Origin: Taxillus chinensis | Lineage: Eukaryota; Streptophyta; Magnoliopsida; Santalales; Loranthaceae | Assembly: GCA_023512835.1 (NCBI GenBank) | Contig: CM042092.1 | Span: forward strand, 50,474,400 to 50,538,399 | Length of the DNA stretch: 64,000 nt | Direction: 5' to 3' | Shown here: positions 4,909-42,313 of the stretch, in pieces | Position numbering within the stretch: position 1 is the first letter of the stretch | Layout: each line of letters starts with the position of its first letter | Program-made: the position numbers and the translations under genes | The notes under the pieces: model-generated | The model's database searches: none | What the model was told of the DNA's origin: nothing | Seen by the model: only the letters and a program-made list of their open reading frames with translations

Positions 4909-4971
<63 letters not shown>

Positions 4972-5126: not shown

Positions 5127-5160
<34 letters not shown>

Positions 5161-5510: not shown

Positions 5511-5551
5511 GGCATCAGTGGGGTCTCCCCCTCTTTCTTTGCAATTGGTTG

Positions 5552-5680
5552 GCAAAGGGGGAGAAGAGAGTACTCTGTCTAGGGGGAGCACACAGTGGAG
5601 GACTGGAGGAGTTCAGGGGGAGTGGTTCGAACGGTTTGCGCATTTTGTCTGTTGCCAACAATTCCAAAGGGGGAGGTTAT
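5552..5680 (+). other. Four PPT-like purine tracts of element C
   Basis: GGGGGAG occurs near 5556, 5581, 5614 and 5669, the last as AAAGGGGGAGG just before the LTR start at 5681. The last copy is the likely plus-strand primer. Multiplied polypurine tracts upstream of the 3' LTR are, to my knowledge, described for Sirevirus copia elements. Confidence 0.65.
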
Positions 5681-5745
5681 TGTTCCCGCGAGGTTGAGTT
5701 GTCATTGTTGTCAACATGTTGCCGGAATCGAAGAATTGTACTTGG
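5681..5745 (+). repeat. Start of 3' LTR of element C (truncated)
   Basis: It begins TGTTCCCGCG three bases after the last purine tract, the usual spacing. It is lost at about 5740-5750, where the sequence becomes homologous (reverse complement) to the tail region downstream of ORF-X in element G (34491-34570). No second copy is in the window, so the LTR identity rests on its position only. Confidence 0.5.
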
Positions 5746-5828
5746 TTGGATAACAAACAGACAAGAAATTACACCCATTTTCATTGATCAACAATAAAGT
5801 ACAATTCTGCCTTTATACAAAATTTTCA

Positions 5829-8540
5829 TTAAGGTACATAACGCTTACTATACTTGAAGATCATCATTGTAGCCTTCTCTCTAAGCTCCATTGTCTACTC
5901 CATTGTGTAGGCTTGGATACTGTTCCAGTTTTTATCCACCTTGACAATAGATTTGATAAAGAAACAGACAAAGGCTCCGCAGCTATCTCCATTAGGCTGT
6001 TGTGGCACTAGCTTCTTGCCTCGGACCGTCGCCTTCATCTTTTCAGTTGGACCCAACGGAGTTAGGCCCCTTTCTTCATAAAGCCCCGATTGCTTTATGG
6101 CTTCTGTCAGATGAATACGCAGAGGCTCAAATTGATTCTTTCTAACATTTTGCTCCACAATTTGATGAGAATCAATTAGAATCAGCTGCTTGGACGAAAT
6201 CATAAAGACAACCAGCATGAAGTGCGGCGTCATGACCCGATATGGAATGAGAACAGATTGAAGAGTCTTCCAGGGAGTGCTATCTTCAGCAGTTCCGTTA
6301 ATAAAGGTCTGAATATCGGCTAAGTCTGGAAGATATCATTCATTCCAACAAGGCAAGATATCAAACATGTGCCTGTCCTTGTATAGGGAAGAAAACAGCC
6401 TCATTTCCATTTTAACTGCCAGCGAGAAGTTGTCTATGTCTTCTGTGGTGAGCAGACCCGTCTCAGAACGAATAGTCCTTATGTCTTGTGGAGAGAAGGG
6501 GTACAACTCGGATAGACATCTTCTCTCAGCATTTGACGTGGCATACCTGGCCATAGCATTAAAAACACTTCCATCCTCATCAAGAGGATCAAGATCCGCG
6601 TATGATGGGAGGAAGGTGTCAGCCGCTGCAGATGGAGTGGTCGAAGGAGGAGCTGCACTAGAGGAGCTGGGCTGAGAGAAGCGGCTGCGTTTGGGGATGG
6701 TAACTCCCCGAAGCAGTGAGGATGCAGACTGCTTTTTTTCAGCATGAGAGGAGGATGGTGCAAGAGGATCAGATGACACTTTCTCCCCCGGTTGGGCAGA
6801 TCGGCGAGGGACGGGAGGAGGACGAGCCATCGTGTGGGCCAAGTCCGCAAAAGAGGTGGACAGGGAATGGATGGACGAGGCGACAAGGTCCATCTTTTGC
6901 TCGATGGAGGTGGAAGAGTTGGTTAAGGCGGGGAGGAGTTGGGCACCAAGGGCATCAACCTTAGCGGCGATGGCAGAAATTTGGGTGGTTTGAGCTTGGG
7001 CATGACGGTCCAGCTGAGCAGATAGCACATCATCGGAGTGAACCGTGCCAAAGGAGGCACGTCCAAGCGCTAACTTTGGAGCTTTGGAGGACTCCCCGGT
7101 AGGAATGGGTGCAGGTGTGCGGTGGGTAGAGGAGTCAGTAGGAGTGGAAGGGACATCAGCAGCAGTAGCAGAGGGGGCATCCGTAGCAGCAGAGCCACTT
7201 TGACTAGAGAGGTCAACAACAGGGATGGCATCTGCGGGAGAGGCAGACCGAGCCTTAGCAGGGGAGGGAACCCATGCGTCATGGGCCTTTCCGGAGGAGA
7301 CAGTGAAGGGAACGTCCGGAATGTGAGTAGGCGTAAGAAAGCCATGGTTCAGATTCCAGACGATCATATCCTCCGGGGTGCGTGTGTGTTTGGCATAAAA
7401 CACCTTGAGGTCATTGTCGGGGATGGAGGCTGTACATGGGAGGCTAAAACGGAACCATAGGTCCGTTAGGGTGTCAGCAGAGAGATGGTCAAGGTAGTCT
7501 TGGGGTAGAGGTAGAGGAGGCAGAGGAGCTTCTAGAGAAGATTCTGGGACATCAGCGACGGCAGTGGCAATGGCAGTATCAACTGCAGCAACAACAGCGG
7601 AAGTGGAGGGAGTGGGGACATCCATAGCAGATGGTGCTGGGGAAGCAGCCTTAGGTAAACTGGGCTGAGATGGTCCCACAACCTCAGAGGGGTTGGCATG
7701 GATGCTGTGCTGGGAGGCTCGAGAGATGGAAGGGGCAGCAACAGACCGAATCTGGGAGGACCGGTGAGCAGAGCTGACTTCGGGGGCACGGCTGTCAGAG
7801 GGGTCACCAACCGAGCTGCCTTGTTGTTCCGAGGCAGGAAGAAGGCGGAGAGCAGTAGAGGGACAGCGAGCTGTCATGTTCCCATCAGGCGTAAGGTGGT
7901 GAAGATAATAAGCTTGAGGGAAAGGAACAGCATCATATCGGGCAAAATGGTCCGGATGAAGATGCCGGAAGACAACACTAAGTATCCGCCCAAAAGAATG
8001 ATTCTTTGGACCGTTCTTCAGTAGTCGGAACAAGAAAGTCCCCCAGTCCATCGGGAGACGCTCAAAGACGCCGTACATAGCCAATAGAAGGTCGTATGGG
8101 ACGGAATCCAGAGCAATGGTACGAGCTAGGAGGCAGCGGCTCAATATGGTCGCCATACAACAGTAGCGACCTTGAAAAGACTTCATTTTGTACTCCTTCC
8201 CCTTATAGGAGCAACCCATGGAAACAGCCATTGTCTCAGCATCCGGGTGCTGAGGATCACCAGGAGGGAGGTTGAGAGTGGCGCGAAGGACATCAGGGGT
8301 GATCAAGATGGATTCACCACGGATGTAGGAGATAATGGAGTCGGTGGTGCAGCAGATCCATTGGTAGAACTCAAGGATGTCTTCAATAAGAAGGTCGACA
8401 GGGTTGGAGATTAGGTTCAGGATGTGAGAGGCTTCCAGGAGTGGGCGGAGTTCCAGAAACCAAGCCGGAGGATCGGAGATAGCACGCCAATTAACCAGAT
8501 GGCCGGGGTTAACGTCGGAAAGAGAAGTTTTGGGTGCCAT
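5829..8540 (-). pseudogene. ORF-X: plant-transposon-like domain plus Ulp1-like (C48) protease, element A
   Basis: A frame of 904 codons starting at ATG 8540 (MAPKTSLSDV), broken only by TGA at 6336-6338 (codon 735). Residues about 20-210 (WRAISDPPAW, FYQWICCTTDSI, MDWGTFLFRLL, VFRHLHPDHF) resemble the 'putative plant transposon protein' domain. Residues about 215-600 are Ser/Ala/Pro-rich with a short coiled-coil-like segment (QISAIAAKVDALGAQL). The C-terminus has a Ulp1-like tetrad: His in TPHF (6222-6224), Asp in LIDSHQ (6171-6173), Gln in PQQ and Cys in GDSCGAF (5979-5981). His-Asp spacing is 17 and Gln-Cys 6, as in yeast Ulp1 (H514, D531, Q574, C580). The family cleaves SUMO-type isopeptide bonds; activity and partner here are unknown. 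It lies in sense, downstream of pol, where Sireviruses may carry an env-like ORF. Confidence 0.85.
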
Positions 8541-10229: not shown

Positions 10230-11755
10230 CTATTCAGAAAAGTCAATCATACCTAATCGGAAGAGTAGTTCAGAGAATCTTGCATCAGGTAGGGGCTTTG
10301 TAAGTATGTCTGCCAGTTGATCTTCAGTAACAACATGTTCAAGAGATATATGCTTTTTGAGAACATGATCGCGAATGAAGTGATACCTAACCTCAATGTG
10401 CTTGGTCTTTGGGTGCATGACAGGATTGTTGCTTATAGCAATTGCACTGGTATTGCCGCAGTAGAGTGGAATAGATGTTATGTTGAAACCGTAGTCAGTA
10501 AGTTGACTTTGCATCCAGAGTAGCTGTGCGCAGCAACTCCCAGCAGCTATATATTCCGCCTCAACAGTAGAGGTTGATATGGAATTCTGCTTCTTACTGA
10601 ACCATGAAATTAATCTATTTCCAAGAAACTGACACGTACCACTTGTGCTTTTCCTGTCGATGCGACACCCAGCAAAATCAGCATCAGAATATCCGGATAA
10701 GGTGAAGTTGGACTCCTTTGGGTACCAGAGTCCCAAATTCACAGTCCCTTTGAGATACCTTAATATCCGTTTGACATGAAGTATATGTGACTCTTTGGGA
10801 TTCGCTTGATATCTTGCACAGATGTAGGTTGCAAACATAATGACTGGGCGACTTACTGTAAGATACAGCAGGGATCCTATCATCCCTCTGTATTCAGTCA
10901 CATTTACTGATTTGCCGTCCACATTAGGGTCTAACTTGGCACTGATTGACATTGGAGTCTTGACGGGAGATGAACCTTCCATACCAAACTTCTTAATTAA
11001 GTCACGTGTGTACTTAGCTTGATTGATGAAGATCCCTTCCTTCAATTGTTTGACTTCTATTCCAAGGAAGTAGGACAGTTCTCCCATCATACTCATCTCA
11101 AACTTGCCAGTCATCAACTTTGCAAACTCTTCACAAAGCTTCGGATTTGATGATCCGAAAATGATATCATCCACATATATCCGTACGATCAGAGTATGTT
11201 CTTTCTCTTTTCGTAGGAATAAAGTGGTGTCTATCTTCCCTTTTTGGAAGTTGTGAGCAAGTAGAAATTCTGACAGTGTGTACCAGGTTCTTGGAGCTTC
11301 CTTCAAACCATACAAGGCTTTCCGTAGCTTGTAGACTTGATGTCCAGCCTTAGGTTCAATGAAACCGGGAGGTTGTTCAACGTACACCTCCTCTTGAAGA
11401 TCTCCATTTAGAAATGCGCTTTTGACGTCCATTTCATATACTATGAAGTTTTCATAAGAAGCATACGCCAAAAACATTCTGATTGCCTCAAGTCTTGCTA
11501 CCGGAGCAAAGGTCTCGTCATAGTCTATTCCTTCTTCTTGACGATATCCTTTGGCTACCAGTCTGGCTTTGTTCCAGATTACTATTCCATCCGTATCAAG
11601 CTTGTTCCGGAACACCTATTTAACTCCAATGACTTGTTGAGACTTAGGCCTTGGTACTAGTGTCCACACATCATTTCTCTTAAACTGATTCAACTCCTCT
11701 TGCATGGCTTCTATCCAGTTTGAATCCTGAAGAGCTTCATCTACCACCTTTGGTT
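10230..11755 (-). pseudogene. pol: RT and RNase H of copia element A
   Basis: The uninterrupted frame 11615-10230 holds most of [36 protein letters not shown], the catalytic YVDDIIFGS, then RNase H with [36 protein letters not shown] and DILTKPLP, ending [12 protein letters not shown]. Upstream the frame meets TAG at 11616-11618, where the neighbouring copies have Trp (G to A change). The catalytic residues of RT and RNase H are intact, so this is the best preserved enzyme segment of A. It converts the element RNA to DNA in the particle. Confidence 0.9.
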
Positions 11756-22962: not shown

Positions 22963-24349
22963 TGTTGGATCAAGCCCAGAATTTGGATAATGCTGATAAA
23001 GCCCTATGTAATTTGATCTGAGATCTTTTGTGTTTCTTTGATCGTTGCAGAAGATATGTTATTAATCCGGAGATACACTCATGAGAGCAAAGCTAAGGAC
23101 AGGATACATAATCCTGATCCGGACAAGAGTGAGTGTCGTCAAACACTTGGTAAATAACCAAGTCACCAATACATACGGAATAAGGAACATTTGTGCGGAC
23201 TAAGAACTTAAAAGCTACGGATTACGGAATTTGTTCCTAATGCCTCAAACGGACTAAGTCAAACGGATGCGGAGTAAGAGTCTTGGTCTACAAGGTCGCA
23301 TGAAGTAAAAGGTTTGACATGGAGTTAAAAAGTTAAGTCTTCCCCTCAAGCGAACTAAAGTAAAGAAGACACGGAGTAAGGCATCCGAGTCTTTCATACA
23401 TATGGAGTAAGGAAGTATTGATGCGGAATAAGGACCCGAGTCTTTATTTGCACGGAGTGAGGAAACTAGATGCGGAGTAAGGAATCCGGGCCACTCACTC
23501 ATGCGGAGTAAGGATGCGCTAGTACGGAGTAAGCCATCCGATCCTTTGAACTTACATACGGAGTAAGGAACTTACATGCGGAATAAGGAAGCACTGATAC
23601 GGAATAAGCACTCCGACCTTCTCATTCACACGGAGTAAGGAAGCGCTGACATGGACTAAGGATTCCAGTACCAAATAGATACGGAGTAAGCAACCACTTA
23701 CACGGAGTAAGGTTTCGAGCTTCATTAGCAACGGAGTAAGGAAAATTACACCGGACCAAGAAGATGCTACTTCAAACTACCGCATTTTAAGTTATCAGCT
23801 CGTGGTGTCCCGATGTAAGACAAACTCGTTGAGAACCTGAAGAATCTTACACGTGGATCACCCGGATATGTGGACACAAGCTTAATTATATTTGGGAACT
23901 CACAAAGGCACTTATACTCTTCAAACCCAAGATCTTGAGCTCCACAAACCGCAGCAGTCAAGGCAGAGAGATTACCGTGGAACAGTTAGTGTTGAACGCA
24001 TTCCGAAACTACAAGTTCCAATGTTGTCTCTTAGGAATGTTTGCATAAATATTCATACTTTTACATTTGTGTGGGTGCGCGAATGAGCCTGAATTAACCC
24101 TGTGTATGCACAAGAGCTCAAAGATACAATCTAGGCTAGTGTGTGAATCTTTTTGTAAATAGAGTGTAAGAGAGTCTTGCTTCTATTTTGTTGTAATTAT
24201 CTCTTGATAATAAAACAAAATACTTCCACTATCTGGTTATCTTCCGCAGTGATTCTATCACTTAACTAGATAAGTGTGGTGTCTTAAGAGATTAGAAAGA
24301 GTTTCGATAAGAGCCTATTCACCCCCCTCTAGGCTCCAAGGGACCATCA
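22963..24349 (+). repeat. 5' LTR of element G
   Basis: It runs from TGTTGGATCAAG to GGGACCATCA. About 20 degenerate CGGAGTAAGG/CGGAATAAGG units lie between about 23175 and 23750. A possible polyadenylation signal AATAAAA is at 24209-24215 and the conserved terminal block CACCCCCCTCTAGGC at 24321-24335. It drives rightward transcription of the element in the family model. Confidence 0.95.
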
Positions 24350-24351
24350 AG

Positions 24352-24364
24352 TGGTATCAGAGCA
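24352..24364 (+). other. Primer-binding site of element G
   Basis: TGGTATCAGAGCA, initiator tRNA-Met type, two bases after the LTR end. Confidence 0.95.
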
Positions 24365-24410
24365 AGTCTATTTGTTTAAAAGTAGAGATCCTACTCTTTT
24401 ACTCTAAGCA

Positions 24411-26704
24411 ATGGCCGAAGAAAGCAGTATGCTATTCAATACTCGCCTTAACTCCGGAGGTGCACAAGAGCCCATCCCGAATCGAAGCAGCAGTGAAAAC
24501 GTTGACCCACCTCAACCTGCTGCTGCCGCCGCTCCTCTACCACGGAGTTCTGGTTTTACCCTGACAAAACTGCCCAAATGCACACCTGACCTTTTCTCCC
24601 AGTGGAAAGCTCGCATGAAGATGTTTATGGTATGCCATGATCATCCCATGTGGCCATGTCTTCATCAGGAGATTCCAATTCCGATGACTAACGGAGAACA
24701 TGGAGTTAGAAGACCAAAGACGGATGCCGAACTTACCAACGATGAAAGAGCCTGGCAGTGCGCTAGTGAAAAAGCTCTAGCTTATGTTACATCGTCTTTG
24801 GATTCCGAGGCTTTCACGGACGTCCAAGGCTGCACGTCAGCAAAAGCTGTCTGGGATAAACTGACAATCCTTTATGAGGGGAGTTAGTCCCAGATGCAAA
24901 ATGTGATATGTGCTCTCAGACAGAATTTTGAGAGTTTCAATCACAAACCTAGCGAATCCCTTGAAAGCATCTATCGGAGATTCGGCAAGCTCATTCTAGA
25001 GCTAAAAACTGTCAATGAGCACTACACTCAGTCTCAAATCAATGACAAGTTCTTTCGATCCTTGCCGGATCGCTACTACTCCAAGCAGCTCCAGATGCAA
25101 GCTGACAAAAACTGGCCGTTTACTGCCCTTGAGGAAATATATGGAGAGCTTCGGACTCATGAGGTCAGATTCAGACACACTGACCGTGATGTGAAAATAG
25201 CTCGGAAAGAAAAAGGGGTAGCTCTCAAAGCTACAGAATGCTCCAGTAATCATCAAGAGGATGATATGGATGAGTCAGAGAATTCTGACTCAGACGCAGA
25301 AGAGGAAATAGCTCTTCTTGTCAAATCCTTTGAACGATTCCTTCGAAAAAGTAGAAAAGGATTCAGAAGAGGCTCCTCATCATCCAGAAGGAAGGAACGA
25401 TCCGAGTCGAGCTCCCAAGAATGCTTTAATTGTGGGAAACTGGGTCACTGGGTCAAGGAATGCAGATCCAAATCTAAGATGACAGAAAAAAGTGACAAGG
25501 TTACTCCTCTACGTACCACCTCAGACAACAGCAAGAACAAGAGGAAGGCGTTCGTGACAAAGTACATCAGTGGCTCGGAAGAAGAGGAAGAATCCTCGGA
25601 TGATGAGCCAACTCCTAAGCCGAACGTCTGCCTCATGGCAAATACTGAGGTACCTTCTATCTCTGAGCTCATGAGTAAATTAGAATCTCTTACTACTGTA
25701 TGTGATCATGAAAAGAATGAGAGACTAATAATTACTCAAATGTACAAAGATATGGAAAGTCAGAATAAACGTCATGAATTTACTATTACTAGACTTGAAA
25801 AGGACATAGCTGACTTCAGAGGGAAAGAAGCTTGGTATCACGATCTAAGAGCTGAAAATCATCTGCTAAATACCAATCTTTCAGGCCTAAAAGTTATAGT
25901 AAAAAGACTCGAGAATGAACTTGAACAGGAAAGGGAAATAAATCATAAGTGGCTTAAATCCGGGGAAATAGCCTCTACATTTAGGACTGATCCGGATAAT
26001 ATTCGAGTCAAACATGGCCTAGGCTCCGAATCATCAACCTCCAATGCTCAAGCTACTGAGTGTCCTCTGGATTTCACTCCAAAACTAACCAACTTATATC
26101 CTGTTAGTACATCTAAACCGTTGGATGGTTTCATTTCAGGTGGCACCATAGTTTATGACTGTGGAGTTGAGGTCACATTCGCACTTCCCGAAGCAGTAGC
26201 ACCCGTAACTAATGATGAAGGGAAGGCTGCTGCAGTTAAAGCCAAAACTGTAGCACCCAAAAAGAAAGGAAAGGCTAAGGCTGACGCATCTAGGGCCAAG
26301 AGCGCGTCACCCAAACGCAATGGATTAGGCCACAGGGAACAGAGTAGAAAGTCTGTAAAATCTATGTATCTCCTGTTTGTACTTCGCATTATAGTGTCTG
26401 TTCCATTTGTAGGGAAATGGGTCATTATCACTATGAATGTTGGAGTTTATCTAATAACTGGCTTTGTAATCAAATTCGTACCAATAAAGATCAGTTTAAT
26501 AAAAAGGTTTCTTCGAGCAAAACAAAATCTAAACCACAAAGGAGTGTCTCTCCCAAGAAAACCCAAATAAAAGAGGCAGCTGAAACTAACAAGTTAAAGT
26601 CAACTTGGAGAGCTAAAAGTCCTAGCAAAATTGAATCCGGAACTGTTGACATTACTGCTGCTCTCTCTAACCGCCCGAAACAAGTTTGGGCACCAAAAGT
26701 GTAA
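24411..26704 (+). pseudogene. gag: gag of copia element G
   Basis: The start is at ATG 24411 (MAEESSMLFNTRL), 47 bp after the PBS. The UBN2-like capsid region covers residues about 50-260 (FSQWKARMKMFMVCHDHPMW, VWDKLTILYEGS, LESIYRRFGKLILELK, FFRSLPDRYYSK). TAG at 24885-24887 interrupts it where the relatives have Gln. Zinc knuckle 1 (ECFNCGKLGHWVKEC) is at 25422-25463 and knuckle 2 (CSICREMGHYHYEC) at 26399-26440. A short deletion near 26363, relative to A, puts knuckle 2 in another frame. Between the knuckles lies a Glu/Lys-rich coiled-coil-like stretch. gag ends with TAA at 26702-26704, and protease follows in the same frame. Confidence 0.9.
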
Positions 26705-28470
26705 ACTGTTGTCTTTCAGGAGCATCTCTGGAATGGATTGCCGGATCACTTGAAGTTAAAGATCAATCAAAGCAAGTGGATCCTCGATAGTGGATGCTCC
26801 GGACATATGACGGGTGATCAGACTCTTCTTGTAGAAGTTAATGAAAAACGAGGTCCATCCGTTTCATATGGTGAGAACAGCAAAGGTAAGACTGTCGGGT
26901 ATGGCACTTTAACTAACGGCTGTGTATCAATCACTAGAGTTGCACTAGTCGAAGGTTTAAAGCATAATTTGCTAAGTGTCAGTAATTTATGTGACAAAGG
27001 ATTCACTGTTTCCTTTATGTCCAACACCTGTACAGTAAGAGAAAACTTATCCGGAGATGTTAAGTTATCCGGATCAAGAGATGGGGACATATACTCAGTG
27101 GTCTTAAGAAATAATTCTTCTGACCCTGTATGCTTCCTCACTGAAGCTTAAGATGAAGATAGTTGGTTATGGCACAAGTGATGCGCACATTTAAACTTTA
27201 AGACATTGTCTAAATTAGCATCACTTGATCTTGTCACTGGCCTACCTAAACTCAAATTCTCCAGAGAGACTCTCTGTCGAGAATGCCAACTGGGCAAACA
27301 GACCAAACATAGCTTTAAGAGCAAATCAGTTAATTTAATAACTGCTCCTCTACAACTTCTTCATATGGACCTCTGTGGTCCTATTTCTGTTCCGTCACTG
27401 GCTGGTGCGAGATATACCCTTGTGGTTATCAATGATTTCACCAGATACACATGGGTGATGTTCCTGAAATCAAAGGATCAAACTTTTGAGCATCTTGTAG
27501 ATCTTTTCAACTGGATAAGCAACTCACAAGGACTGGGCATAAAGTGCATCAGGAGTGATCATGGTACAGAATTTGATTTTTCAGAAATGAGATCATATTG
27601 TTCTGAACAGGGCATACAGCATGACTTCTCTGCGCCCAGAACTCCACAACAAATTGGGGTAGCTGAGCGCAAGAATCGTACCTTAGTTGAGGCTGGTAGA
27701 TCTATGTTAGCAGGGGCAACGCTTCCTCTCAGTCTATGGGCTGAAGTTGTGTCCACTGCCTGCTATGTTCAAAACAGAACTCTAATAAATAAATCTACCA
27801 TGAAAACACCCTATGAGATGTGGAGAGGACGAAAACCTTCAATTTCACATTTCAGAGCTTTTGGGTGTACTGGCTACATATTGATAAATGGCAAAAAGAG
27901 ACCCGGAATAAATTTGAACCAAAATCTGATGATGGGATTTTTGTTGGGTACTCATTACATAGCAAAGCTTATCGGGTCTTCAATAGAAAACTTTTTAAAG
28001 TTGAAGAATCTATCCATGTGACTTTTGATGAAGCTAATCTTGATTGGTCAAAAGTTGCTTCTTCAAGTTCTAATGTGCAGAATTAGGACGATACATCAAC
28101 TATTCAAAGTTTATGAATGTTCCTGTTACACATACTGACCAACCACGTGGCACCAGTGAAGCACAAAGAAATGATATGGATGATGCTATGGACGATTCGG
28201 ACTCAGGACTACCATTAAACTCCGGACATATTCTTACGGATATCCAAAATCCCGGAGTCCCTTCAAGTCCGTCCGGACCAGTTAACACTGAAAGAAATAG
28301 TGTTGAAGAACTACCTAGTTCTACCGTACCTTCTAATATGGAAACATCTAGTCTGGACGAAGCTCAACCAGCAGATACACCTGAACCACCTAATCTGGCA
28401 GAGCTTCAAATTATTTAAGATCATCCATCACATGCACAGAATTACAGATGGACCCGAAACCATCCCTCAG
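26705..28470 (+). pseudogene. pol: Protease and integrase of copia element G
   Basis: Aspartic protease: WILDSGCSGHMTGD (Asp codon at 26786). Integrase: zinc-binding region with CRECQLG, catalytic Asp in HMDLCGP (about 27365), Asp in IRSDHGTEFD (about 27560) and Glu in PQQIGVAERKNRT (about 27660), so the DDE triad is present. Breaks: stops at 27149-27151 and 27179-27181, a frameshift near 27890 (GKKRPG), and stops near 28084 and 28416 where sister element A has Gln. The segment 28113-28418 is the Ser/Pro/Asp-rich linker before RT. In-frame with gag but for the TAA at the boundary. Confidence 0.9.
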
Positions 28471-30088
28471 ATCAAGTGATTGGTGATCCTACTGTTGGTG
28501 TAAGAAAAAGAGCAGCCACCTCCAACATGAGTCTTTACTCATGTTTTCTATCTCAAATAGAACCAAAGGTGGCAGATGAAGCTCTTCAGGATTCGAATTG
28601 GATAGAAGCCATGCAAGAAGAGCTGAATCAATTTAAGAGAAATAATGTGTGGACTTTAGTACCAAGGCCTAAGTCTCAGCAATTCATTGGAGTTAAATGG
28701 GTGTTCCAGAACAAGCTTGATATGGATGGAATAGTAATCCGGAACAAAGCCAGATTGGTAGCCAAAGGATATCGTCAAGAAGAAGGAATAGACTATGATG
28801 AGACCTTTGCTCCAGTAGCAAGACTTGAGGCAATCCGAATGTTTTTGGCGTATGCTTCATATGAAAACTTCATAGTTTATCAAATGGATGTCAAGAGCGC
28901 ATTCCTGAATGGAGATCTTCAAGAGGAGGTTTACGTGGAACAACCTCCCGGTTTCATTGAACCTAAAGCAGGACATCTAGTCTACAAACTTCGGAAAGCT
29001 TTATATGATTTGAAGCAAACTCCAAGAGCCTGGTACGACACACTGTCAGAATTCCTACTTGCTCACAACTTCCAAAAAGGGAAGATAGACACCACCTTAT
29101 TTCTACGAAAAGAGAAAGGACACACTCTAATCGTACAGATATACGTGGATGATATCATTTTCGGATCAACGAATTCGAAGCTTTGTGAAGAGTTTGCTAA
29201 GTTGATGACAGGCAAGTTTGAGATGAGCATGATGGGAGAACTGTCCTACTTCCACGGAATAGAAGTTAAACAATTGAAGGAAGGAATCTTCATTAATCAA
29301 GCTAAGTACACTCACGATCTTATTAAGAAGTTTGGTATGGAAGGTTCATCTCCCGTCAAAACTCCCATGCCTGTCAGTGCCAAGTTAGATCCTGATGTGG
29401 ATGGCATATCAGTAAATGTGACTGACTACAGAGGGATGATAGGATCCTTGTTGTATCTTATGGCAAGTCGCCTAGACATTATGTTTGCAACTTGCATCTG
29501 TGCACGATATCAGGCGAATCCCAAGGAGTCACATATGCTTCATGTTAAATGGATATTAAGGTATCTCAAGGGAACGATGAATTTGGGACTCTGGTACCCA
29601 AAGGAGTCTAACTTCACCTTATCCGGATACTCTGATGCCGACTTTGCTGGATGTCGCATCGACAGGAAGAGCACAAGTAGTACGTGTCAGTTTCTTGGAA
29701 ATAGATTAATTTCATGGTTCAGTAAGAAGCAAAATTCCGTATCAACCTCTATCTCGAGGTGGAATATATAGTCTTTGGAAGTTGCTGCGCACAGCTACTC
29801 TGGATGCAAAGTCAACTTACTGACTACGGTTTCAACATGTCATCTATTCCACTCTACTGTGATGACACTAGTGCAATTGCTATCAGCAACAATCCTGTCA
29901 TGCACCCTAAGACGAAGCATATTGAGGTCAGGTATCACTTCATACGCGACCATGTTCTCAAAAATCACATTTCCCTAGAACATGTTGCTACTGAAGATCA
30001 ACTGGAAGACATACTTACAAAGCCCCTACCTGATGCAAGATTCTCTAAACTACTCATCCGATTAGGTATGCTTGACTTCTCTGCATAG
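28471..30088 (+). pseudogene. pol: RT and RNase H of copia element G
   Basis: RT shows [49 protein letters not shown] and the catalytic YVDDIIFGS (Asp-Asp at 29148-29153). RNase H starts with [19 protein letters not shown] frameshift near 29745 removes the region around the conserved Glu (AEYI in A); the frame resumes at 29759 with [35 protein letters not shown] and ILTKPLP, stopping at 30088. Colinear with A 11755-10230. Confidence 0.9.
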
Positions 30089-31659
30089 TTTCACATTTAA
30101 ATTACCCAACAGTATACTTACTATCAGAACATGCATTGTGCTTTTAGTGAAAGTAGAAGATACATACTGATTTTAATGCTAATAATACTTACTGATTAAC
30201 GGCTTCATGCTTCTGATATTAACATCAACTTCATATTGGGAGGATGCTTGCGTTTCCCGATTGAAGTCGTTTAAGCAAACATGATTAAAGTTTATATGAT
30301 TAACCTCATTCTGGTTTCATGATCTTAATTTCCACTGATCACCACATGACAAAAGCCTGTTCATTTAGATTACTCTATTAACATGTATAGTTGAAGAAAT
30401 GAAATGGGTTAGCTTGGAATGCCTGGTGGATGAATACTCAATCATGATCGATCAGCTTGAAGTATAGTTTCCTAAAAAGATAGACAGTGCTGAATTTCTA
30501 TAAGCCGGAAAGGTCTACCGAGAGGATTGCACAATCTACAGGGGAGAAAATGCTTTATAAATTATTCGAGTAATACCCCCCGTATATGTCTCATGACCTC
30601 TTTCCTGGCTGTCTATTTGAGGGGGAGCCTTTCATTGAGAGGATCAAATGATCTACGGGGGAGCTTAAGCTTCATCTATTACCTCAGTAATGACCCCCTA
30701 ATATGTCTCGGATACTCTCTCCTCTAAACCTTTACTTCCGGATCTGACTGGACATGCGGTTTTGGAATAGAATAGTGGCATGTTTCGATGTATTTTTTTT
30801 CTTCAACCGTGCATTTTAATCGGGTAATCAACAGCTTACTTTTGCCATGTGCCCGCTTCCTCATTTTTCACTCATGAATCCTAATTTGGCCAAATCATAT
30901 GATCTTTAATTAATCTTAGCTACGTCGTTCAGCAGGACGGTTTCGTTATGTTGACCTATATGAACTTGTGTATTTATTATCTGACATATGTCCTGATTCA
31001 GTCACAATGATCATTCTCTCGTCTGTATATGTCTATTTCATTCTTTGTAATGCATGAGTTCTGTTTCTCTTTAGTTCGGATTATGTAGCTCTTCACTGAC
31101 TATTTTCTCCTATCCGTACTAATCCGTGCCTATTCAACTTTTGTATTTTTAGTTTATTTTTTTAAGCTACAGGTTCAGTTTTTCTTTGCAACCTTATCGG
31201 TAAATCTAGTCTATAGTCTTGGATTTGAAGTGTTGTGGTACTTCTCTTCTCTTCGACTTATTGACAGCAAAAGAATCTACTTCTCTCTCCACGCACTTTG
31301 TTACTACGGACACAGTCTACTTTTCATTCGGATACTCTTCACTCGACTATCGTTGATTCTGGATGATTGTCGGTTCATTCCTCCGGACTCCTAACACTGT
31401 CAAATTGCGATAATCCATGTCTTCTTTAATATCGCGTGCTTTTGAGGAGGAATCATGATGATTCATTAAATGCATATCTCGGGATGCACACACTTCTCCG
31501 GAAGGCGAACAGCTGTTACCTTTATTTGGTCATGCCGCCTCCACGTCATCTTTTAATTCGGAGGCGCATCGATATCAAGACTAATGACATCAGCCTGTCA
31601 AGCGGTTCACTGTTTCACTCGCCAAATTCCTAGACCCATTGACATTTACGGACTCGGTC
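30089..31659 (+). other. Non-coding spacer between pol and ORF-X, element G
   Basis: About 1.57 kb with no credible coding region, colinear with the A spacer. At 30520-30725 there are two tandem copies of a block: GAGAGGAT, a purine core (CTACAGGGGAGAA; CTACGGGGGAGC), then AATACCCCCCGTATATGTCTC or AATGACCCCCTAATATGTCTC. A third purine run GAGGGGGAGCC lies between them. The cores look like polypurine tracts. Confidence 0.6.
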
Positions 31660-31667
31660 TTATATAT
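31660..31667 (+). promoter_or_regulatory. TATA-like box upstream of ORF-X in element G
   Basis: TTATATAT in the context GACTCGGTCTTATATATTCTGG, 115-122 bp before the position of the ORF-X start codon and followed by a C/T-rich leader. It matches the element A box in sequence and distance. Confidence 0.45.
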
Positions 31668-31781
31668 TCTGGTCATTCCTGCGAAGCACGAGCGTTACCC
31701 CTTTCAAATCCCTAAATCTCTTGTTGCTCCTTCAATCCCCAAGACTTCACCTTTCCTCTCACCCTTCAACTTTCGTCTACA

Positions 31782-34490
31782 TTAGCACCCAGAACCTCTC
31801 TGTTCGGTGTTAATCCCGGCCATCTGGTTGATTGGAGCGCTGTCTCCAACCCTCCAGACTGGTTTTCCGACATTCGCCCTCTTCTAGAAGCCTCTCACCT
31901 ACTCGACCTGATCTCCATTCCTGTCGATCTGCTTATAGACGACATTCTCGAGTTTTACCAATGGATTCGTTGTACCGCCGACTCCATCATCTCCTATGTT
32001 CGCGGTGAATCCATCCTCATTACCCCCACTGTTCTCCGTGCTGCTCTCCATCTACCCCCCGGTGAACCACAGCGCCCCAATGCCGATCCCATGGCAGCTT
32101 CTATGGGTTGCACCTACAAAGGCAAGGAATACAAGGTGAAGTCCTTCCAAGGTCGCTATCGCTGTATGGCGACCATCTTGAGTCAATGTTTATTGGCTCG
32201 CACATCCGCCCTGGACTCCGTTCCGTACGACCTTCTTCTGGCCATGTACGGCGTTTTCGAAGGTCTTCCAATGGACTGGGGGACATTTTTGTTCCGACTG
32301 CTGCAGACTGGACCCAAGAACCGTTCTTTCGGGCGCATACTCAGCATTGTCTTCCGGCATCTTCATCCGGACAATTTCGCCCACTCTGATGCTGTTTCAT
32401 TCCCTCCGGCTTATTACCTTCGCTATCTTATGCCTGATGGAAACATGGCAGCCCGTCGTCCCTCTGTAGCTCTTCGCCCCCTCCCTGCCGCGGAACAACA
32501 AGACAGTTCTGTTGGTGACCCCTCTACCAGCCATGCCCAAGAGGTCAGCTCTACTCAGCGGTCCTCCCGGATTCGGTCCGTTGCTGCACCCTCCGTTTCT
32601 CGGGTTTCCCAGCACAGCGTCCGTGCCGATCCTTCCGAGGTTGCGGGGCCCTCTCAGCGCAGCGTCCCTAAAGCTGTTTCCTCAGCCCCTTCTGATGTGG
32701 ATGTCCCCACTCCCTCCACTTCCGCCATTGCTGCCGCAGTTGATACTGCTATTGCTGCCGTCACTGCTGATATCCCGGCATGTACTCCGGAAGCTCCTTT
32801 GCCTCCCCTACCTAAACCCCAAGATTATCTTGACCATCTCTCTGCTGACACCTTAACGGACCTATGGCTCCATTTCAGTCTTGCCCACACTGCCTCCATT
32901 CCTGACACCGATCACCGGGTGTTTTACACGCGCCATACCCAATCGCCGGAGACCATGATCATCTGGAACTTGGACCATGGCTTTCTTACGCCGGCCTCCA
33001 TTCCAGATGTGGCGTTCCCTACCCCCTCCAGCCCAGTCCCTGCCGCACGGAGTCCTTCCCCTGCTAAGGCTGGCCCCTCTTCTCCTGCTGCCGCGATTCC
33101 CGTGGTTGACCTATCTGGTGAAAGCGGGTCAGCTGCTCTGGATGCCCCTTCTGCTGCTGCTGCGGATACTCCGGCGGACTCCTCTGCCCAGCGCACTCCT
33201 GCTCCTGTTCATGCGGGGGAGTCCTCCAAAGCTCCGGAGTTTGTCCTTGGGCGTGCTTCTTTTGGCACGGTCCACTCCGACGCTGTGCTCTCCGCCCAGC
33301 TGGACCGACACGCTTAAGCTCATAGCGCCCAAATATCCGCCATCGCCGCCAAGGTTGATGTACTTGGCACCCAACTCCTCTCCGCTCTCACTGATTCCTC
33401 CACTTCCATGGAACAGAAGATGGATCTCGTCGCCTCGTCTGTCCATTCCTTGTCTACCTCCTTCGCGGACCTGGCACACACGATGGCTCGCCCTCCTGTT
33501 GCTTCCCGGCGATCTGCCAAACCGGGGGAGAGAGTGTCATCTGATCCTTCTGCTCCTCCTGCACCATAACCATCCACTAGTGTTGAGAAGCGGCCTGCCT
33601 CTTCATTGCTTCAGGGAGTTCAAATTCCCAAAAGTAGCCACTTCTCTCAGCCAAGCTCCTCGACTGCAGCTCCTCCTCTATCCTCTTCACCCGCAGCTGA
33701 CAACTTCCTCCTATCATACGCGGTGTGTGACCCTTCTGATGCGGATAGAAGCGTGCGTAAGGCAATGAAGTCCTATGCTGCGTCTTCTGCTGAGAGAAGA
33801 TGTCTCTCTGACCTGTACCCTTTCTCCTCGGCCGACATTCAGACCCTTTGTTCGGAGAGAGGACTCTTTACAACAGAAGACATTGACAACTTCTTTAGGG
33901 CTCCTAAAATGGAGATGAGGCTGTTTCCATCTCTATACAAGGATGGGCACTTGTTTGAAGTTCTGCCGTGCTGGAATGAAGGTTATCTTCCCAGTGTAGA
34001 TCTCATTCAGTCCTTCATCGACGGAACTACTGAGGATAGCAAGCCATGGAAAACTCTCTCAACTATCCTCATTCTGTACCGGATCATGTCGCCACATTTC
34101 ATGATGGCTGTCTTCATGATTCCATCCAAACAAATGATTCTGATTGATTCTCATCAGATTGTGGAGCATTATGTAAGAAAGAATCAATGGGAACCACTGT
34201 GTCTCAGCCGATCAAAAGTCGTGAAGAAAGCTGGATTATATGAAGAGTTGGGCATCACACCCTTGAGTCCAATTGAGAAGCTGAAGGCGACATTCCGGGG
34301 CAAGAAGCAAGTGCCACAACAGTCGGATGGAGATAGCTGCGGGGCCTTTGTCTGTTACTTCATCAAGTTATTCTTAACTGTGGACAAATCTTGGAGCCAA
34401 CACACCACTTATACGATGAAGCAGACAATGGAGCTTAGAGAGAAAGCAGCAACTATGATCTTCAAGTATAGTAAGCCTTATGTACCTTAA
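31782..34490 (+). pseudogene. ORF-X: plant-transposon-like domain plus Ulp1-like (C48) protease, element G
   Basis: 903 codons in one frame, colinear with ORF-X of A. The start codon position reads TTA instead of ATG, and TAA stops fall at 33315-33317 (codon 512) and 33567-33569 (codon 596). The N-terminal domain (about residues 20-210) has WSAVSNPPDWF, FYQWIRCTADSI, MDWGTFLFRLL and VFRHLHPDNF. The middle is Ser/Ala/Pro-rich. The C-terminus (about 730-903) is the Ulp1-like domain: His in SPHFM (34095-34097), Asp in LIDSHQ (34146-34148), Gln in PQQSD and Cys in GDSCGAFVC (34338-34340). His-Asp is 17 residues, Asp-Cys 64 (49 in yeast Ulp1) and Gln-Cys 6. The usual His-Trp pair is His-Phe. A role in SUMO removal or host-protein control is possible but inferred. 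Confidence 0.85.
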
Positions 34491-34620
34491 TGAAAATCTT
34501 GTATAAAGGTTGAATTGTATTCTGTTGCTGATGAATGAAATTGGTTGTGATGCGTATTCTGTATGTTATCTTCTTGCACTGCTTACCAGATTAGATTACA
34601 AAGGGTTTGGGCATATCCAT

Positions 34621-34633
34621 AATTGGGGGAGAT
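34621..34633 (+). other. Polypurine tract of element G
   Basis: AATTGGGGGAGAT ends directly at the 3' LTR start (34634). It would prime plus-strand synthesis. Confidence 0.85.
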
Positions 34634-36020
34634 TGTTGGATCAAGCCCAGAATTTGGGTAATGCTGATAAAGCCCTATGTAATTTGATCTGAGATCTTTT
34701 CTGTTTCTTTGATCGTTGCAGAAGATATGTTATTAATTCGGAGATACACTTGTGAGAGCAAAGCTAAGGATAGGATACATAATCCTGATCCGGATAAGAG
34801 TGAGTGTCGTCAAACACTTGGTAAATAACCAAGTCACCAATACATACGGAATAAGGAACATTCGTGTGGACTAAGAACTTAAAAGCTACGGATTACGGAA
34901 TCTGTTCCTAATGCCTCAAACAGACTAAGTCAAACTGATGCGGAGTAAGAGTCTTGGTCTACAAGGTCGCATGAAGTAAAAGGTTTGACATGGAGTTAAA
35001 AAGTTAAGTCTTCCCCTCAAGCGAACTAAAGTAAAGAAGACACGGAGTAAGGCATCCGAGTCTTTCATACATACGGAGTAAGGAAGTATTGATGCGGAAT
35101 AAGGACCCGAGTCTTTATTCGCACGGAGTAAGGAAACTAGATGCGGAGTAAGGAATCCGGGCCACTCACTCATACGAAGTAAGGATGCGCTAGTATGGAG
35201 TAAGCCATCCAATCCTTTGAACTTACATACGGAGTAAGGAACTTACATGCGGAATAAGGAAGCGCTGATACGGAATAAGCACTCCGACCTTCTTATTCAC
35301 ACGGAGTAAGGAAGCACTGACACGGACTAAGGATTCCAGTACCAAATAGATACGGAGTAAGCAACCACTGACACGGAGTAAGGTTCCGAGCTTCATTAGC
35401 AACGGAGTAAGGAAAATTACACCGGACCAAGAAGATGCTACTTCAAACTACCGCATTTTAAGTTATCAACTCGTGGTGTCCCGATGTAAGACAAACTCGT
35501 TGAGAACCTGAAGAATCTTACACGTGGATCACCTGGATATGTGGACACAACCTTAATTATATTTGGGAACTCACAAAGGCACTTATACTCTTCAAATCCA
35601 AGATCTTGAGCTCCACAAACCGCAACAGTCAAGGCAGAGAGATTACCGCGGAATAGTTAGTACTGAACGCATTCCAGAACTACAAGTTCCAAGGTTGTCT
35701 CTTAGGAATGTTTGTATAAATATTCATACTTGTACATTTGTGTGGGTGCGCGAAGGAGCCTGAATTAACCCTGTGTATGCACAAGAGCTCAAAGATACAA
35801 TCTAGGCTAGTGTGTGAATCCTTTTGTAAACAGAGTGTAAGAGAGTCTTGCTTATATTTTGTTGTAATTATCTCTTGATAATAAAACAAAATACTTCCAC
35901 TATCTGGTTATCTTCCGCAGTGATTCTATCACTTAACTAGATAAGTATGGTGTCTTAAGAGATTAAAAAGAGTTTCGATAAGAGCCTATTCACCCCCCTC
36001 TAGGCTCCAAGGGACCATCA
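34634..36020 (+). repeat. 3' LTR of element G
   Basis: 1387 bp, TGTTGGATCAAG to GGGACCATCA, the same length as the 5' LTR, with no indel visible by eye and about 3% substitutions. It is followed by the TSD GATCA at 36021-36025. Confidence 0.95.
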
Positions 36021-39805: not shown

Positions 39806-41756
39806 TGTAGGTCCCAAAGTCAACCTAGAGGAGGGGGGGGGTGAATAGACTTTCTTCATGCGTGGAAGTTAGATTGTTTGCTGGCATGTGTTACTTCTAA
39901 GGACAACTATGTATTTGTGGACAAGATGACAGTAGTAATTTGTGTGATTATGTGAGTTATGAACTAACAAACAAATCTGAGATGTAGTAAATGCTCCTTG
40001 TTCACAGATCTCAGTTGTGTAAGGAATGGTCTGTGATAGTTTTGATTATAGAAACCAACATTGAGGTTAGACTGTATAATTGTGCTGAATCTTGGGTGAA
40101 CAAGAGTATATGTTGGATCACAAAGTTTGATCTTGATCTTGGTTCAACGCGGCGCATAGCACTTGGAAGTTCTTTTCCCTCAGAGTCTCTCTATCTAGCG
40201 TTGGAACTCCTTTTTCTGAATTCTGCAAAAGATCTATTTCTTACTGTGCGTCAGAATCCTTTTTCTTGTGTTCTGTGTATTCCACGCTTTCACAGAAAGA
40301 GACTAACTCCATACTTTGTCGTTAAGTGTGAGAGAGATATATATTTTAAGTTTTGATTACTGTGCTCCTAGTTGTCCATCTGACAGACTGACTTCCCGCC
40401 ACTGGATATGCGGGATGTCAGGGGATGGGTTGATCTGCTATGATTTGAAGATCTATTGCCCATGCTGCGCAGTTGCATGCCCATACTTGCGCAGTCGATC
40501 TTGGCCATTCATCCGTGGAAAGTGGTTGATTGCAATTAGTACGACATTAACTGCACTCCAACTGCTCAAGACGGCACAAGCTTATTGTATAAACCCTAGC
40601 TGAAGATATCGCTATGTGAATATGCTTAGGGTTGTAAGTATGCCTTGAAAGTGGGTGCCTCGTAGGTTTGGTGACTAGAAGGTTTCAGTTAGAGCCTGTT
40701 GAAGTTGCGGAAGTTTACTTTAGGCTTTACAGTATTGATATCTGCGAGTCTACGACTCACATATCTTCGAGTCTCCGAGGCTAGAGTTCGAGTTAGATTA
40801 AGTCTGTTGTGTCACTCTATTAACTGTAAGTCTGCGACTCTGTGAGTCTACGACTCTACGAGTCTGTGACTATCCTAATGGCTCTTAGAGTGACTTTTTC
40901 GAGGTGCGCCTAATCTACCTGTTGTTACACCTTCGAGTCTACGTCCTTCGGGTTTCTCAGCTTATTTTACTTGACTAAGAGGCTCTTCAACTCTGCAAGT
41001 CTTCGACCTTAGAAACCATCGACTCTACGAGTCTTAGACTTTACATTTCTTCCTTAGCCTTTCGCATTTGCTTATGCACTGACTTTCCGTATTCTACGAG
41101 TCTTCGACTCTACGGCTACGACCCTTCAGCTATAACTCTCTGCCTTCATGATCTTCAAGTCTATGATGTGTCTGACAAGTTCCTTAAATTACCTGTATCC
41201 CTTGAGTCTACGACTCTACGACTCTCGAGTTACAGTTTCATTTTAGTTGGTCAATCTTTTTGGTTTCGACTCTTCGACCTTCGACCTATGAGTCTGTGAG
41301 TCCTATTTTCTTAACAGTGTTTTAAGGCTGCGACTCTACGACCCTTGAGTCTACGAGTCTAGCGGTACTTTATGTTCCGTTAAGTGACATAAGTGCTTTA
41401 GGGACTCTACAGTTCTACCGGCTTCAAGTCTTCAAGTTATTTAAGTCTGGTTACTGTTCTTTAAGATTCTTTGACTCTACGAGTCTCTGAATTTAATCGT
41501 CGCTTACAGTAACCGCTCTCTTTTCATACTGCGACTCTACGACCTTCAACCCTGTATCTACGAGTCGCAATGTGTTCTGTCATAAATAAGCTTCGAGTCT
41601 CCAGACCCCACGAGTTTACGAGCCTCTCGCCCATATGTCCTGTGACAGATTTACTTGTATTAACTTTGACTCGTCGACCCTATGACCCATTGAATCTACG
41701 AGTCTTAAGACTTAGACTGTATCTTGGCAGCTTCATCAAATCCTATATATCCAACA
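39806..41756 (-). repeat. 3' LTR of copia element D
   Basis: 1951 bp. On the minus strand it begins TGTTGGATATAT and ends GACTTTGGGACCTACA. At the outer end the plus strand shows a run of G before GTGAATAGAC (39831-39845), the same GTGAATAG block as in the A/B LTRs. The middle is filled with GACTC/GAGTC palindromes (next entry). Confidence 0.8.
40740..41720. repeat. Array of GACTC-n-GAGTC palindromic motifs in the D LTR
   Basis: GAGTC, GACTC, CTACGAGTC and CGACTCTACGA occur dozens of times over about 1 kb, many as self-complementary pairs such as GACTCTACGAGTC (for example at 40850-40864, 41089-41115, 41469-41485). Spacing is irregular. Conserved palindromes in LTRs are known from Sirevirus elements. 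Confidence 0.75.
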
Positions 41757-41770
41757 ATCTCCCCCTATTT
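41757..41770 (-). other. Polypurine tract of element D
   Basis: The minus strand reads AAATAGGGGGAGAT directly before the 3' LTR. Further CTCCCCC runs at 41911-41995 on the plus strand are extra purine tracts in sense (at least three), as in element C. Confidence 0.8.
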
Positions 41771-42313
41771 AATGTAAGCTGACAACCGGTGAAAATCATG
41801 AAGTCTGAGACTACGATTCTTCTTTTGGGCATTTTTAAGTTAACAGAACATATCTTTGCATATGAAAAATTTGGAGGAGATTCAAGTTACGAAAAGGTTC
41901 ACATTGCTCTCCCCCATAAGCATAAAATTCTTCGTTAGCTGCCTTTTGTCGAAGATACTCCCCCTACGACCTTGCTCCCCCTGAGAGATACTCCCCCTTT
42001 CTGGGGTGAGGAACAAGCACTAGAACATATGGGAGCAACACAAGATAGTATAGGGCAGTAGGCAGTAGATCAAAGATATAAGAGAAAAAGTAACTGAGAG
42101 AGAATAAGTACACAGAAATGGGAAAGAAGTGCAGTGTACAATTAAATAGAGTACAAGACAGTTACGGTTTAAAGTCAAAATATTTTACACTTTGCGTAAA
42201 TAGAAAAACAGTGGCTTGCTCACGCAAGAGTTGAGCAGTAGTCAGATGTAACAAGGCGGCTCGACTGCTCACACAATCGAATTCAGGCACGAGGGCAGGG
42301 AAGCTAGTGGTGG

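What the first reader, a model, noticed from the sequence alone, without database searches (positions are those of the whole stretch)
5829..8540. A Ulp1/SENP-like protease is encoded inside a copia retrotransposon (ORF-X, element A)
Seen: downstream of copia pol, on the same strand and inside the element, a 904-codon frame ends with a His-17-Asp and Gln-6-Cys constellation (TPHF, LIDSHQ, PQQ, GDSCGAF). Established: yeast Ulp1 uses H514, D531, Q574 and C580, the same His-Asp and Gln-Cys spacings. Ulp1-like genes are known as cargo of MULE-type DNA transposons in plants, and Sireviruses can carry an env-like ORF at this position. Inference: this copia family has fused a plant-transposon-like N-terminal domain to a C48 protease, perhaps to control SUMO marks on host silencing or integration factors. 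I do not recall this arrangement being described.
Basis: partly seen in the sequence, partly recalled or inferred. Interest (0 to 1): 0.88.

Follow-up and report, generated by a model that had tools for sequence, protein, structure and literature searches.

The report
SUMO-protease-like gene in copia retrotransposons
Two copies of a plant copia-type jumping gene carry, after their usual genes, an extra gene that ends in a protease domain of the kind cells use to remove SUMO-type tags; both copies here are broken, but the gene looks to have been kept under selection beforehand.

Summary
The frame is real. It lies on the minus strand (8540-5829, 904 codons) in copia element A, but is not open: stops at codons 735 and 882. 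Element B (22963-36020, + strand) is a complete LTR element with an allelic frame (to 34490) and two different stops. Both copies score above Pfam's curated cut-off for Peptidase_C48, and His773/Asp790/Gln848/Cys854 are present in both. B has most, not all, Sirevirus (SIRE) junction motifs tested, so the frame sits where SIRE elements carry their "envelope-like" extra ORF. Another Sirevirus-like element (D) has a related N-terminal domain there but no detectable C48, so C48 is a variable C-terminal module. Between A and B, 4 of 4 ORF-X indels are multiples of three and dN/dS is 0.22 (C48 part 0.24): a functional protein gene before these copies decayed. Its fourfold-site divergence is about 2.5-3.4 times that of gag-pol, suggesting module exchange. 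SUMO specificity and an anti-silencing role are untested; fold prediction failed and PDB sequence matches were weak. One 121-genome survey reports no gained domains in plant Copia; papers listed by my (capped) literature searches showed no C48-bearing plant LTR element. Verdict: new variant of the SIRE extra ORF, moderately high interest.

The parts
5829..8540 (-). ORF-X, copy A: 904-codon frame with internal stops at 6336-6338 and 5895-5897
5829..6473 (-). C48 (Ulp1-like) domain of copy A (residues 690-903 and stop); H 6222-6224, D 6171-6173, Q 5997-5999, C 5979-5981
   Evidence: Pfam PF02902 25.5 bits, cut-off 20.7; residue positions; domain start at residue 690 is my choice
7842..8540 (-). 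N-terminal domain of ORF-X, copy A (weak PF20167 match, below cut-off)
   Evidence: 11.9 bits, E 0.21; 79% identical to copy B
31779..34490 (+). ORF-X, copy B: frame with internal stops at 33315-33317 and 33567-33569; start chosen one codon before the place of A's ATG, where B has TTA (31782-31784)
33846..34487 (+). C48 domain of copy B; H 34095-34097, D 34146-34148, Q 34320-34322, C 34338-34340; lies wholly in an open stretch (33570-34490)
   Evidence: Pfam PF02902 26.3 bits, cut-off 20.7
31779..32480 (+). N-terminal domain of ORF-X, copy B (PF20167, 23.4 bits, below cut-off 45)
22963..36020 (+). Element B, complete copia element: LTRs 22963-24349 and 34634-36020 (96.8% identical), target-site duplication GATCA at 22958-22962 and 36021-36025
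24348..24363 (+). Element B 5'LTR/PBS junction CA-AGTGG-TATCAGAGC (Sirevirus form)
   Evidence: motif described in PMC2829016
34625..34635 (+). Element B PPT and attachment site GGGGGAG-AT/TG at the 3'LTR
28419..29768 (+). Element B reverse transcriptase piece of pol
   Evidence: PF07727 261.9 bits
24411..26570 (+). Element B gag region
   Evidence: ORFs 24411-24887 and 24894-26570; PF14223 and PF00098 in 24888-26567
10230..11615 (-). Element A reverse transcriptase piece of pol, same strand as ORF-X copy A
   Evidence: ORF; 91% aa identity to element B piece over 355 codons
20052..20067 (-). Element A 5'LTR/PBS junction CA-AGTGG-TATCAGAGC
42314..44280 (-). Element D extra ORF (frame-broken): related N-terminal domain (matched 44274-43678) and no detectable C48
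   Evidence: tblastn E 2e-15 with A and 2e-17 with B, no hit of the C48 pieces there at E<=10; three-frame view; no C48 in Pfam in 4 pieces
41755..41998 (-). Element D cluster of four AGGGGGAG copies, the last followed by the AT/TG attachment site

Best explanation
Elements A and B are most likely SIRE-lineage (Sirevirus) Ty1/copia retrotransposons whose extra 3' sense ORF, at the 'envelope-like' position, encodes an N-terminal extra-ORF domain, a Ser/Ala/Pro-rich middle with a coiled-coil-like stretch (by eye), and a C-terminal clan CE, family C48 (Ulp1/SENP-like) cysteine protease. Shown: position, profile match, tetrad, constraint, decay of both copies. Inferred: the protein was made from its own mRNA (a CTTATATAT stretch lies about 120 nt before the start position in both copies), acted in the nucleus, and removed SUMO or another ubiquitin-like modifier from host or element proteins. 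The most likely benefit is helping the element escape silencing or complete replication, by analogy with the Ulp1-bearing VANC/KIU genes of plant MULE transposons. I put about 0.9 on the anatomy, 0.6 on an active C48 protease in the source copies, and 0.35 on an anti-silencing deSUMOylase.
For: C48 above the curated cut-off in two copies that are 73% identical over the whole protein and 68% in C48. Catalytic H, D, Q, C identical with the stated spacing. PDB sequence matches, though weak, are mostly Ulp1/SENP-type proteases (SENP1 in 5 of 6; SENP1, Dub1 or a membrane thiol protease in 10 of 10). ORF-X indels are 3, 9, 9, 3 nt, against 17 indels, 1 of 17 a multiple of three, in the adjacent linker. 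dN/dS 0.215 overall, 0.237 in C48 (95% bootstrap 0.16-0.36). Element B has LTRs, target-site duplication, PBS and PPT around the ORF, and several Sirevirus motifs match PMC2829016. A grapevine copia gene model runs from RT into PF20167 (1 of 120 listed RT relatives).
Against: Both copies are broken. Only two copies with C48 were seen. Pfam aligns only the part after the His, Asp to Cys, in A and the Cys part in B; the His part rests on spacing and A-B conservation. AlphaFold gave no usable model (mean pLDDT 35.3). PDB hits are not significant alone (best E 0.054; one of six is an unrelated cardiotoxin). His is followed by Phe, not the Trp I recall in Ulp1/SENP. For MULE-borne relatives (KIUs) a review judges action on SUMO unlikely. 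Two protein-database searches with the C48 part found no relative, though their length limit excludes ~900-aa proteins. B lacks the multiple-PPT cluster of Sireviruses.
Confidence: 0.72

Rival explanations
1. The C48 domain acts on the element's own proteins: a maturation protease, like the clan CE proteases that process virion proteins in adenoviruses (recalled), rather than on host SUMO conjugates.
For: It sits in the extra ORF of an element type that makes virus-like particles (established knowledge). His-Phe instead of His-Trp and the Ser before the Cys may mark a non-SUMO specificity (inference). The KIU relatives are judged unlikely to act on SUMO.
Against: LTR-retrotransposon pol already encodes an aspartic protease (PMC7264820). 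Element D has the same ORF position and a related N-domain without detectable C48, so C48 seems not needed for maturation across the lineage.
Confidence: 0.2
2. Catalytically dead binding domain: the C48 fold was kept for binding ubiquitin-like proteins or as an oligomerisation part, not for cleavage.
For: Pfam match is modest (25-26 bits) and the Trp after His (recalled) is missing. Raised identity around the tetrad is only suggestive (within 5 residues 31 of 39, reached by 20 of 213 circular shifts).
Against: All four tetrad residues are identical in both copies, and within 3 residues of them 23 of 27 are identical against 122 of 187 elsewhere (8 of 213 circular shifts reach this).
Confidence: 0.15
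3. Passive cargo: a captured host or MULE fragment, carried by one or a few copies and of no use to the element.
For: Plant TEs often capture gene fragments (PMC7264820; PMC13317346); both copies here are broken and only two were seen.
Against: In frame with the extra-ORF domain, colinear in two copies, frame-preserving indels and dN/dS 0.24 in C48; silent divergence of ORF-X exceeds that of gag-pol, so the module is old.
Confidence: 0.07
4. The higher silent divergence of ORF-X reflects faster mutation (methylated C in GC-rich DNA), not exchange of ORF-X modules between subfamilies.
For: Fourfold sites of ORF-X are more GC-rich overall (0.47 against 0.32-0.40), and transitions are common.
Against: Transversions at fourfold sites are also higher: 61 of 367 against 36 of 398, Fisher p 0.002. 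The C-terminal third (residues 601-903) has GC 0.40 at these sites and still differs at 37 of 82 (p 3e-6), transversions 21 of 82 (p 1e-4).
Confidence: 0.35

Closest known systems
SIRE/Sirevirus extra 3' sense ORF (eORF-3'F, 'envelope-like')
   Same: Place between pol and 3'LTR, orientation, most junction motifs tested; in grapevine a copia gene model leads into PF20167 (sub-threshold)
   Different: Published SIRE eORFs fall into 19 groups with little or no mutual similarity and their function is questioned (PMC6317226, passages); here a catalytic domain is recognisable. Best 19-residue hydropathy is 1.76, at the C48 His strand, and up to 1.54 in the other pieces scanned, so no clear transmembrane segment
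KIU (Kaonashi) / VANC genes of plant MULE (Vandal) DNA transposons
   Same: A TE-borne Ulp1/C48 domain in a TE-specific accessory gene, conserved in eudicots; linked with anti-silencing in Vandal elements (PMC13317346, passages)
   Different: DNA transposons, not LTR retrotransposons; N-terminal partner not shown to be related
Peptidase_C48 in plant CACTA transposons
   Same: C48 as a variable accessory domain of a plant TE (PMC8978399, passages)
   Different: Class 2 element; different partner domains
Ulp1-like domain of NeSL/Utopia non-LTR retrotransposons and of Ginger1 transposons
   Same: Ulp1-like protease encoded by a mobile element, in nematode NeSL/Utopia a retrotransposon (PMC4640811; PMC2836005; passages)
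   Different: Non-LTR or DNA elements, animals, domain in the main protein rather than in a separate 3' ORF
Orchid Ty3/gypsy elements with an AlkB demethylase ORF
   Same: Plant LTR element with a gained enzyme domain in an extra ORF (PMC9289625, section 12 and passages)
   Different: Gypsy, AlkB; that survey of 121 genomes reports no domain gain in Copia

Membership tests
Peptidase family C48 (Pfam PF02902) | Profile match above the curated cut-off | tested here: met
   25.5 and 26.3 bits, cut-off 20.7, both copies; 26.9 for the trimmed B domain
Peptidase family C48 (Pfam PF02902) | Catalytic His, Asp, Gln, Cys in order with family spacing | tested here: met
Peptidase family C48 (Pfam PF02902) | Ulp1-type three-dimensional fold | tested here: inconclusive
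   AlphaFold model of a 3-row alignment, mean pLDDT 35.3
Peptidase family C48 (Pfam PF02902) | Isopeptidase activity on a ubiquitin-like protein | not testable with these tools
   needs protein assay
Sirevirus / SIRE (Ty1/copia) | 5'LTR/PBS junction CA-A(T/G)TGG-TATCAGAGC | tested here: met
   Exact in elements A, B and the left-edge element; not found for D within 2 mismatches; motif from PMC2829016
Sirevirus / SIRE (Ty1/copia) | PPT AGGGGGAG followed by AT/TG at the 3'LTR | tested here: inconclusive
   B has T at the first octamer place (7 of 8), then AT/TG; D has the exact octamer and AT/TG
Sirevirus / SIRE (Ty1/copia) | Multiple PPT copies near the 3'LTR | tested here: not met
   In B one exact copy in the linker (30620-30627), none between ORF-X and the 3'LTR besides the terminal variant; A has two in its linker (9644-9687); D has four in 41759-41998
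Sirevirus / SIRE (Ty1/copia) | Inverted repeat flanking the terminal PPT | tested here: met
   Score 27 against a maximum of 22 in 300 mononucleotide shuffles, element B
Sirevirus / SIRE (Ty1/copia) | PolyC-rich integrase signal near LTR ends | tested here: inconclusive
   TTCACCCCCCTCTA at 24318-24331 and 35989-36002; picked by eye, the published consensus letters were not seen
Sirevirus / SIRE (Ty1/copia) | Reverse transcriptase phylogeny within SIRE | not tested
   no reference RT set was aligned
Pfam PF20167 (Transposase_32) N-terminal domain | Profile match above the curated cut-off | tested here: not met
   B 23.4, A 11.9 bits, cut-off 45
Envelope-like protein | Transmembrane segment | tested here: inconclusive
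   Best 19-residue hydropathy 1.76, at the C48 His strand, elsewhere up to 1.54; 4 of 5 stop-free ORF-X pieces scanned, plain hydropathy only

The most novel reading that the evidence does not exclude
A lineage of Sirevirus copia retrotransposons carries its own deSUMOylase (or deconjugase of another ubiquitin-like tag), built by adding a C48 protease to the SIRE extra ORF and passed between subfamilies by recombination, and used it against host silencing: an LTR-element counterpart of the VANC/KIU system of MULE transposons.
Probability: 0.28. Interest if true: 0.82.

Novelty: new variant of a known kind. Interest (0 to 1): 0.62.

Why it matters
The extra ORFs of SIRE copia elements are carried by 74% of elements in one survey, yet whether they do anything was left open (PMC6317226, passages). 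A catalytic domain with an intact tetrad gives a testable biochemical function for one branch. If active, it would show that LTR retrotransposons as well as MULE and CACTA transposons recruited C48 proteases, pointing to the SUMO/ubiquitin-like pathway as a repeated target of plant transposons.

Tried and rejected
Nested MULE or gene fragment inserted into copia: rejected, because the frame is colinear in two copies and in frame with the extra-ORF N-domain, a relative of which element D has. Chance frame: rejected.

Structure prediction of the C48 part (3 rows) and N-domain (4 rows) gave mean pLDDT 35.3 and 38.1, so no fold search was run. Relatives: C48 part in viral contigs (1 stretch, none confirmed) and genome contigs (20 stretches, none confirmed), collections without plant genomes; N-domain in viral contigs (none); protein database with the 306-aa piece (0 of 628 candidates at E<=0.001) and the 243-aa piece (0 of 80 at E<=10). 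These two searches consider only proteins of 0.55-1.75 times the query length, so ~900-aa homologues could not appear. My third search went to the RT piece as a control and showed that plant copia proteins are in that database (7993 of 7993 scored candidates at E<=0.001, best 120 listed). I should have spent one on the 734-aa piece. NCBIfam gave nothing for 5 of 5 pieces, the RT included, so it is no evidence either way. Of the 120 listed RT relatives I scanned 4 with Pfam; only P0031 is listed with PF20167.

Direct BLASTP of B's N-domain with P0031 was not significant (E 0.15). Gag and integrase dN/dS (0.66, 0.52) are higher than for ORF-X; these pieces are short and decayed, and I do not read them as relaxed selection.

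Full report
What is there. The frame at 5829-8540 is on the minus strand (one search shows the plus-strand reading closed, another the minus strand). It runs 904 codons from ATG at 8540 to a terminator at 5829-5831, with two internal stops at codons 735 and 882. An allelic frame lies in element B on the plus strand, ending at 34490; numbered from 31779 it has stops at codons 513 and 597, and TTA at 31782-31784 in place of A's ATG. No stop is shared, so the common ancestor was probably open. In both copies the reading frame holds 3 stops including the terminator, while the other five frames hold 23-59.

The element. Element B is complete. Its LTRs at 22963-24349 and 34634-36020 are 96.8% identical (K2P 0.0334), which at a recalled rate of 1.3e-8 per site per year is about 1.3 million years. 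It is flanked by GATCA on both sides. Gag, integrase and reverse transcriptase pieces match Pfam models. ORF-X ends at 34490 and the 3'LTR begins at 34634. Element A is colinear with B from about 20804 down to 5749, apart from insertions at about 12700-14370 and 15173-17584, and its 3' end including the 3'LTR is missing.

Lineage. The 5'LTR/PBS junction CA-AGTGG-TATCAGAGC is exact in A, B and an element at the left edge, as described for Sireviruses (PMC2829016, abstract and passages). B's PPT is one letter off the published octamer, followed by AT/TG; an inverted repeat flanks it (score 27, none of 300 shuffles reached it); polyC stretches lie near the LTR ends. B lacks the multiple PPT cluster, so that test was not met. 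I did not build an RT tree. SIRE is the best fit, not proved.

The protease domain. Pfam Peptidase_C48 scores 25.5 bits in A (146-aa piece, profile 104-181) and 26.3 in B (profile 159-211), cut-off 20.7. H773, D790, Q848 and C854 occur in both. The profile alignment in A starts after the His and covers Asp to Cys; in B it covers the Cys part. The PDB sequence comparison is weak: 5 of 6 matches up to E 10 for the B piece are SENP1, best E 0.091, and one is a cardiotoxin. With the three-row profile 10 of 10 are SENP1 (5), the Dub1 deubiquitinase/deneddylase (3) or a membrane thiol protease (2), best E 0.054. AlphaFold gave mean pLDDT 35.3, so the fold is not confirmed. The match is real at the profile level in two diverged copies, but not structurally verified.

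The N-terminal domain. PF20167 matches B at 23.4 and A at 11.9 bits, below the curated 45. It still has company. Element D (minus strand; its RT region 47840-46303 is 69% identical in DNA to B's) carries a related domain at 44274-43678 (tblastn E 2e-15 with A, 2e-17 with B), between RT and a cluster of four AGGGGGAG copies ending in AT/TG. Its frame is broken, ends at 42314, and shows no C48. I call D Sirevirus-like: its PBS junction was not found within 2 mismatches and I identified no LTR pair. A grapevine protein (P0031, 1 of 120 listed RT relatives) runs from copia RT into PF20167 (29.5 bits, also below cut-off), although direct BLASTP between B's domain and P0031 is not significant (E 0.15). 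In sunflower PF20167 was found in an Athila extra ORF (PMC11728184, abstract and passages). I conclude that this is probably a retrotransposon extra-ORF domain and that C48 is an add-on, or a part lost in D.

Selection. Across A and B, ORF-X differs by indels of 3, 9, 9 and 3 nt, whereas the adjacent linker has 17 indels, 14 of them of 1 or 2 nt. dN/dS is 0.215 for 896 codons (bootstrap 0.18-0.26), 0.112 in the N-domain and 0.237 (0.16-0.36) in C48. Identity is raised around the tetrad: 23 of 27 residues within 3 positions against 122 of 187 elsewhere, reached by 8 of 213 circular shifts; within 5 positions it is 31 of 39, reached by 20 of 213. The evidence at the tetrad is suggestive only.

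An unexpected point. Fourfold-degenerate divergence between A and B is K2P 0.63 in ORF-X but 0.19-0.26 in six gag-pol pieces; LTR (0.242) and linker (0.218) agree with gag-pol. Differences are 150 of 367 against 78 of 398 sites (p 1e-10), transversions 61 of 367 against 36 of 398 (p 0.002); the C-terminal third alone, no richer in GC at these sites (0.40) than the integrase piece, differs at 37 of 82 (p 3e-6). Either ORF-X modules were exchanged between subfamilies, or ORF-X mutates faster. I lean to exchange, with about 0.65 confidence.

How it probably works. Inferred, not shown: an extra-ORF protein made from its own transcript. Both copies have CTTATATAT about 120 nt before the start position; an internal promoter for Sirevirus ENV is a hypothesis discussed in PMC2829016, whose authors could not identify one conclusively. 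The C-terminal protease would remove a ubiquitin-like tag. In MULE Vandal elements, VANC genes with a Ulp1 domain (KIUs) are tied to hypomethylation of related elements, with the Ulp1 role unknown (PMC13317346, passages); another review doubts that KIUs act on SUMO (PMC6117577, passages). I therefore keep the anti-silencing deSUMOylase claim at 0.35.

What is known. C48/Ulp1 domains are known in MULE, CACTA, Ginger1 and NeSL/Utopia elements. For plant LTR elements, a 121-genome survey lists 15 gained domains, all in Gypsy, and states no gain in Copia. I read its section 12 and passages; the words Ulp1, SUMO and C48 do not occur in its main text; its unfiltered supplementary chart was not seen (PMC9289625). 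SIRE extra ORFs fall into 19 dissimilar groups (PMC6317226, passages). My searches of the held library listed no paper whose title or abstract start describes a C48-bearing copia element; these lists are capped (for instance 25 of 102, 20 of 2,035, 40 of 47). Subscription papers and repeat databases were not searched, so prior description cannot be excluded.

Verdict. Real feature, described with one main error (internal stops). New variant of the SIRE extra ORF. Interest 0.62.

Noticed in passing
window 4670-5300: Four runs of about 25-60 C (G on the minus strand) within 630 bases next to the broken 3' end of element A; possibly assembly artefacts or a real low-complexity tract.
   Followed up: no
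window 3030-5749: Plus-strand copia fragment (RT in 3030-3980, 162.7 bits RVT_2; then a Sirevirus-like cluster of AGGGGGAG at 5556-5675) abuts the truncated 3' end of element A where its 3'LTR should be.
   Followed up: partly
window 12700-14370 against 51760-53664: A 1.7 kb insertion in element A's pol matches in pieces (71-84%) a stretch beside element D's gag; perhaps a solo LTR of a D-type element.
   Followed up: no
window 1-3124: Another member of the A/B family (minus strand, LTR and gag) running off the left edge; its ORF-X region is outside the window.
   Followed up: no
window 5829-8540 against 31779-34490: Fourfold-site divergence of ORF-X is about 2.5-3.4 times that of gag-pol pieces, LTR and linker in the same pair of elements: possible module exchange.
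   Followed up: partly
window 22963-24349 and 34634-36020: LTRs carry many tandem-like CGGAGTAAGGA units, some bounded by CGG...CCG, reminiscent of the Sirevirus repeated motifs (by eye).
   Followed up: no
window 59295-62135: Long gypsy-type pol frame (minus strand, 713 aa stop to stop) followed by a 232-aa integrase-like frame; identified by eye only.
   Followed up: no
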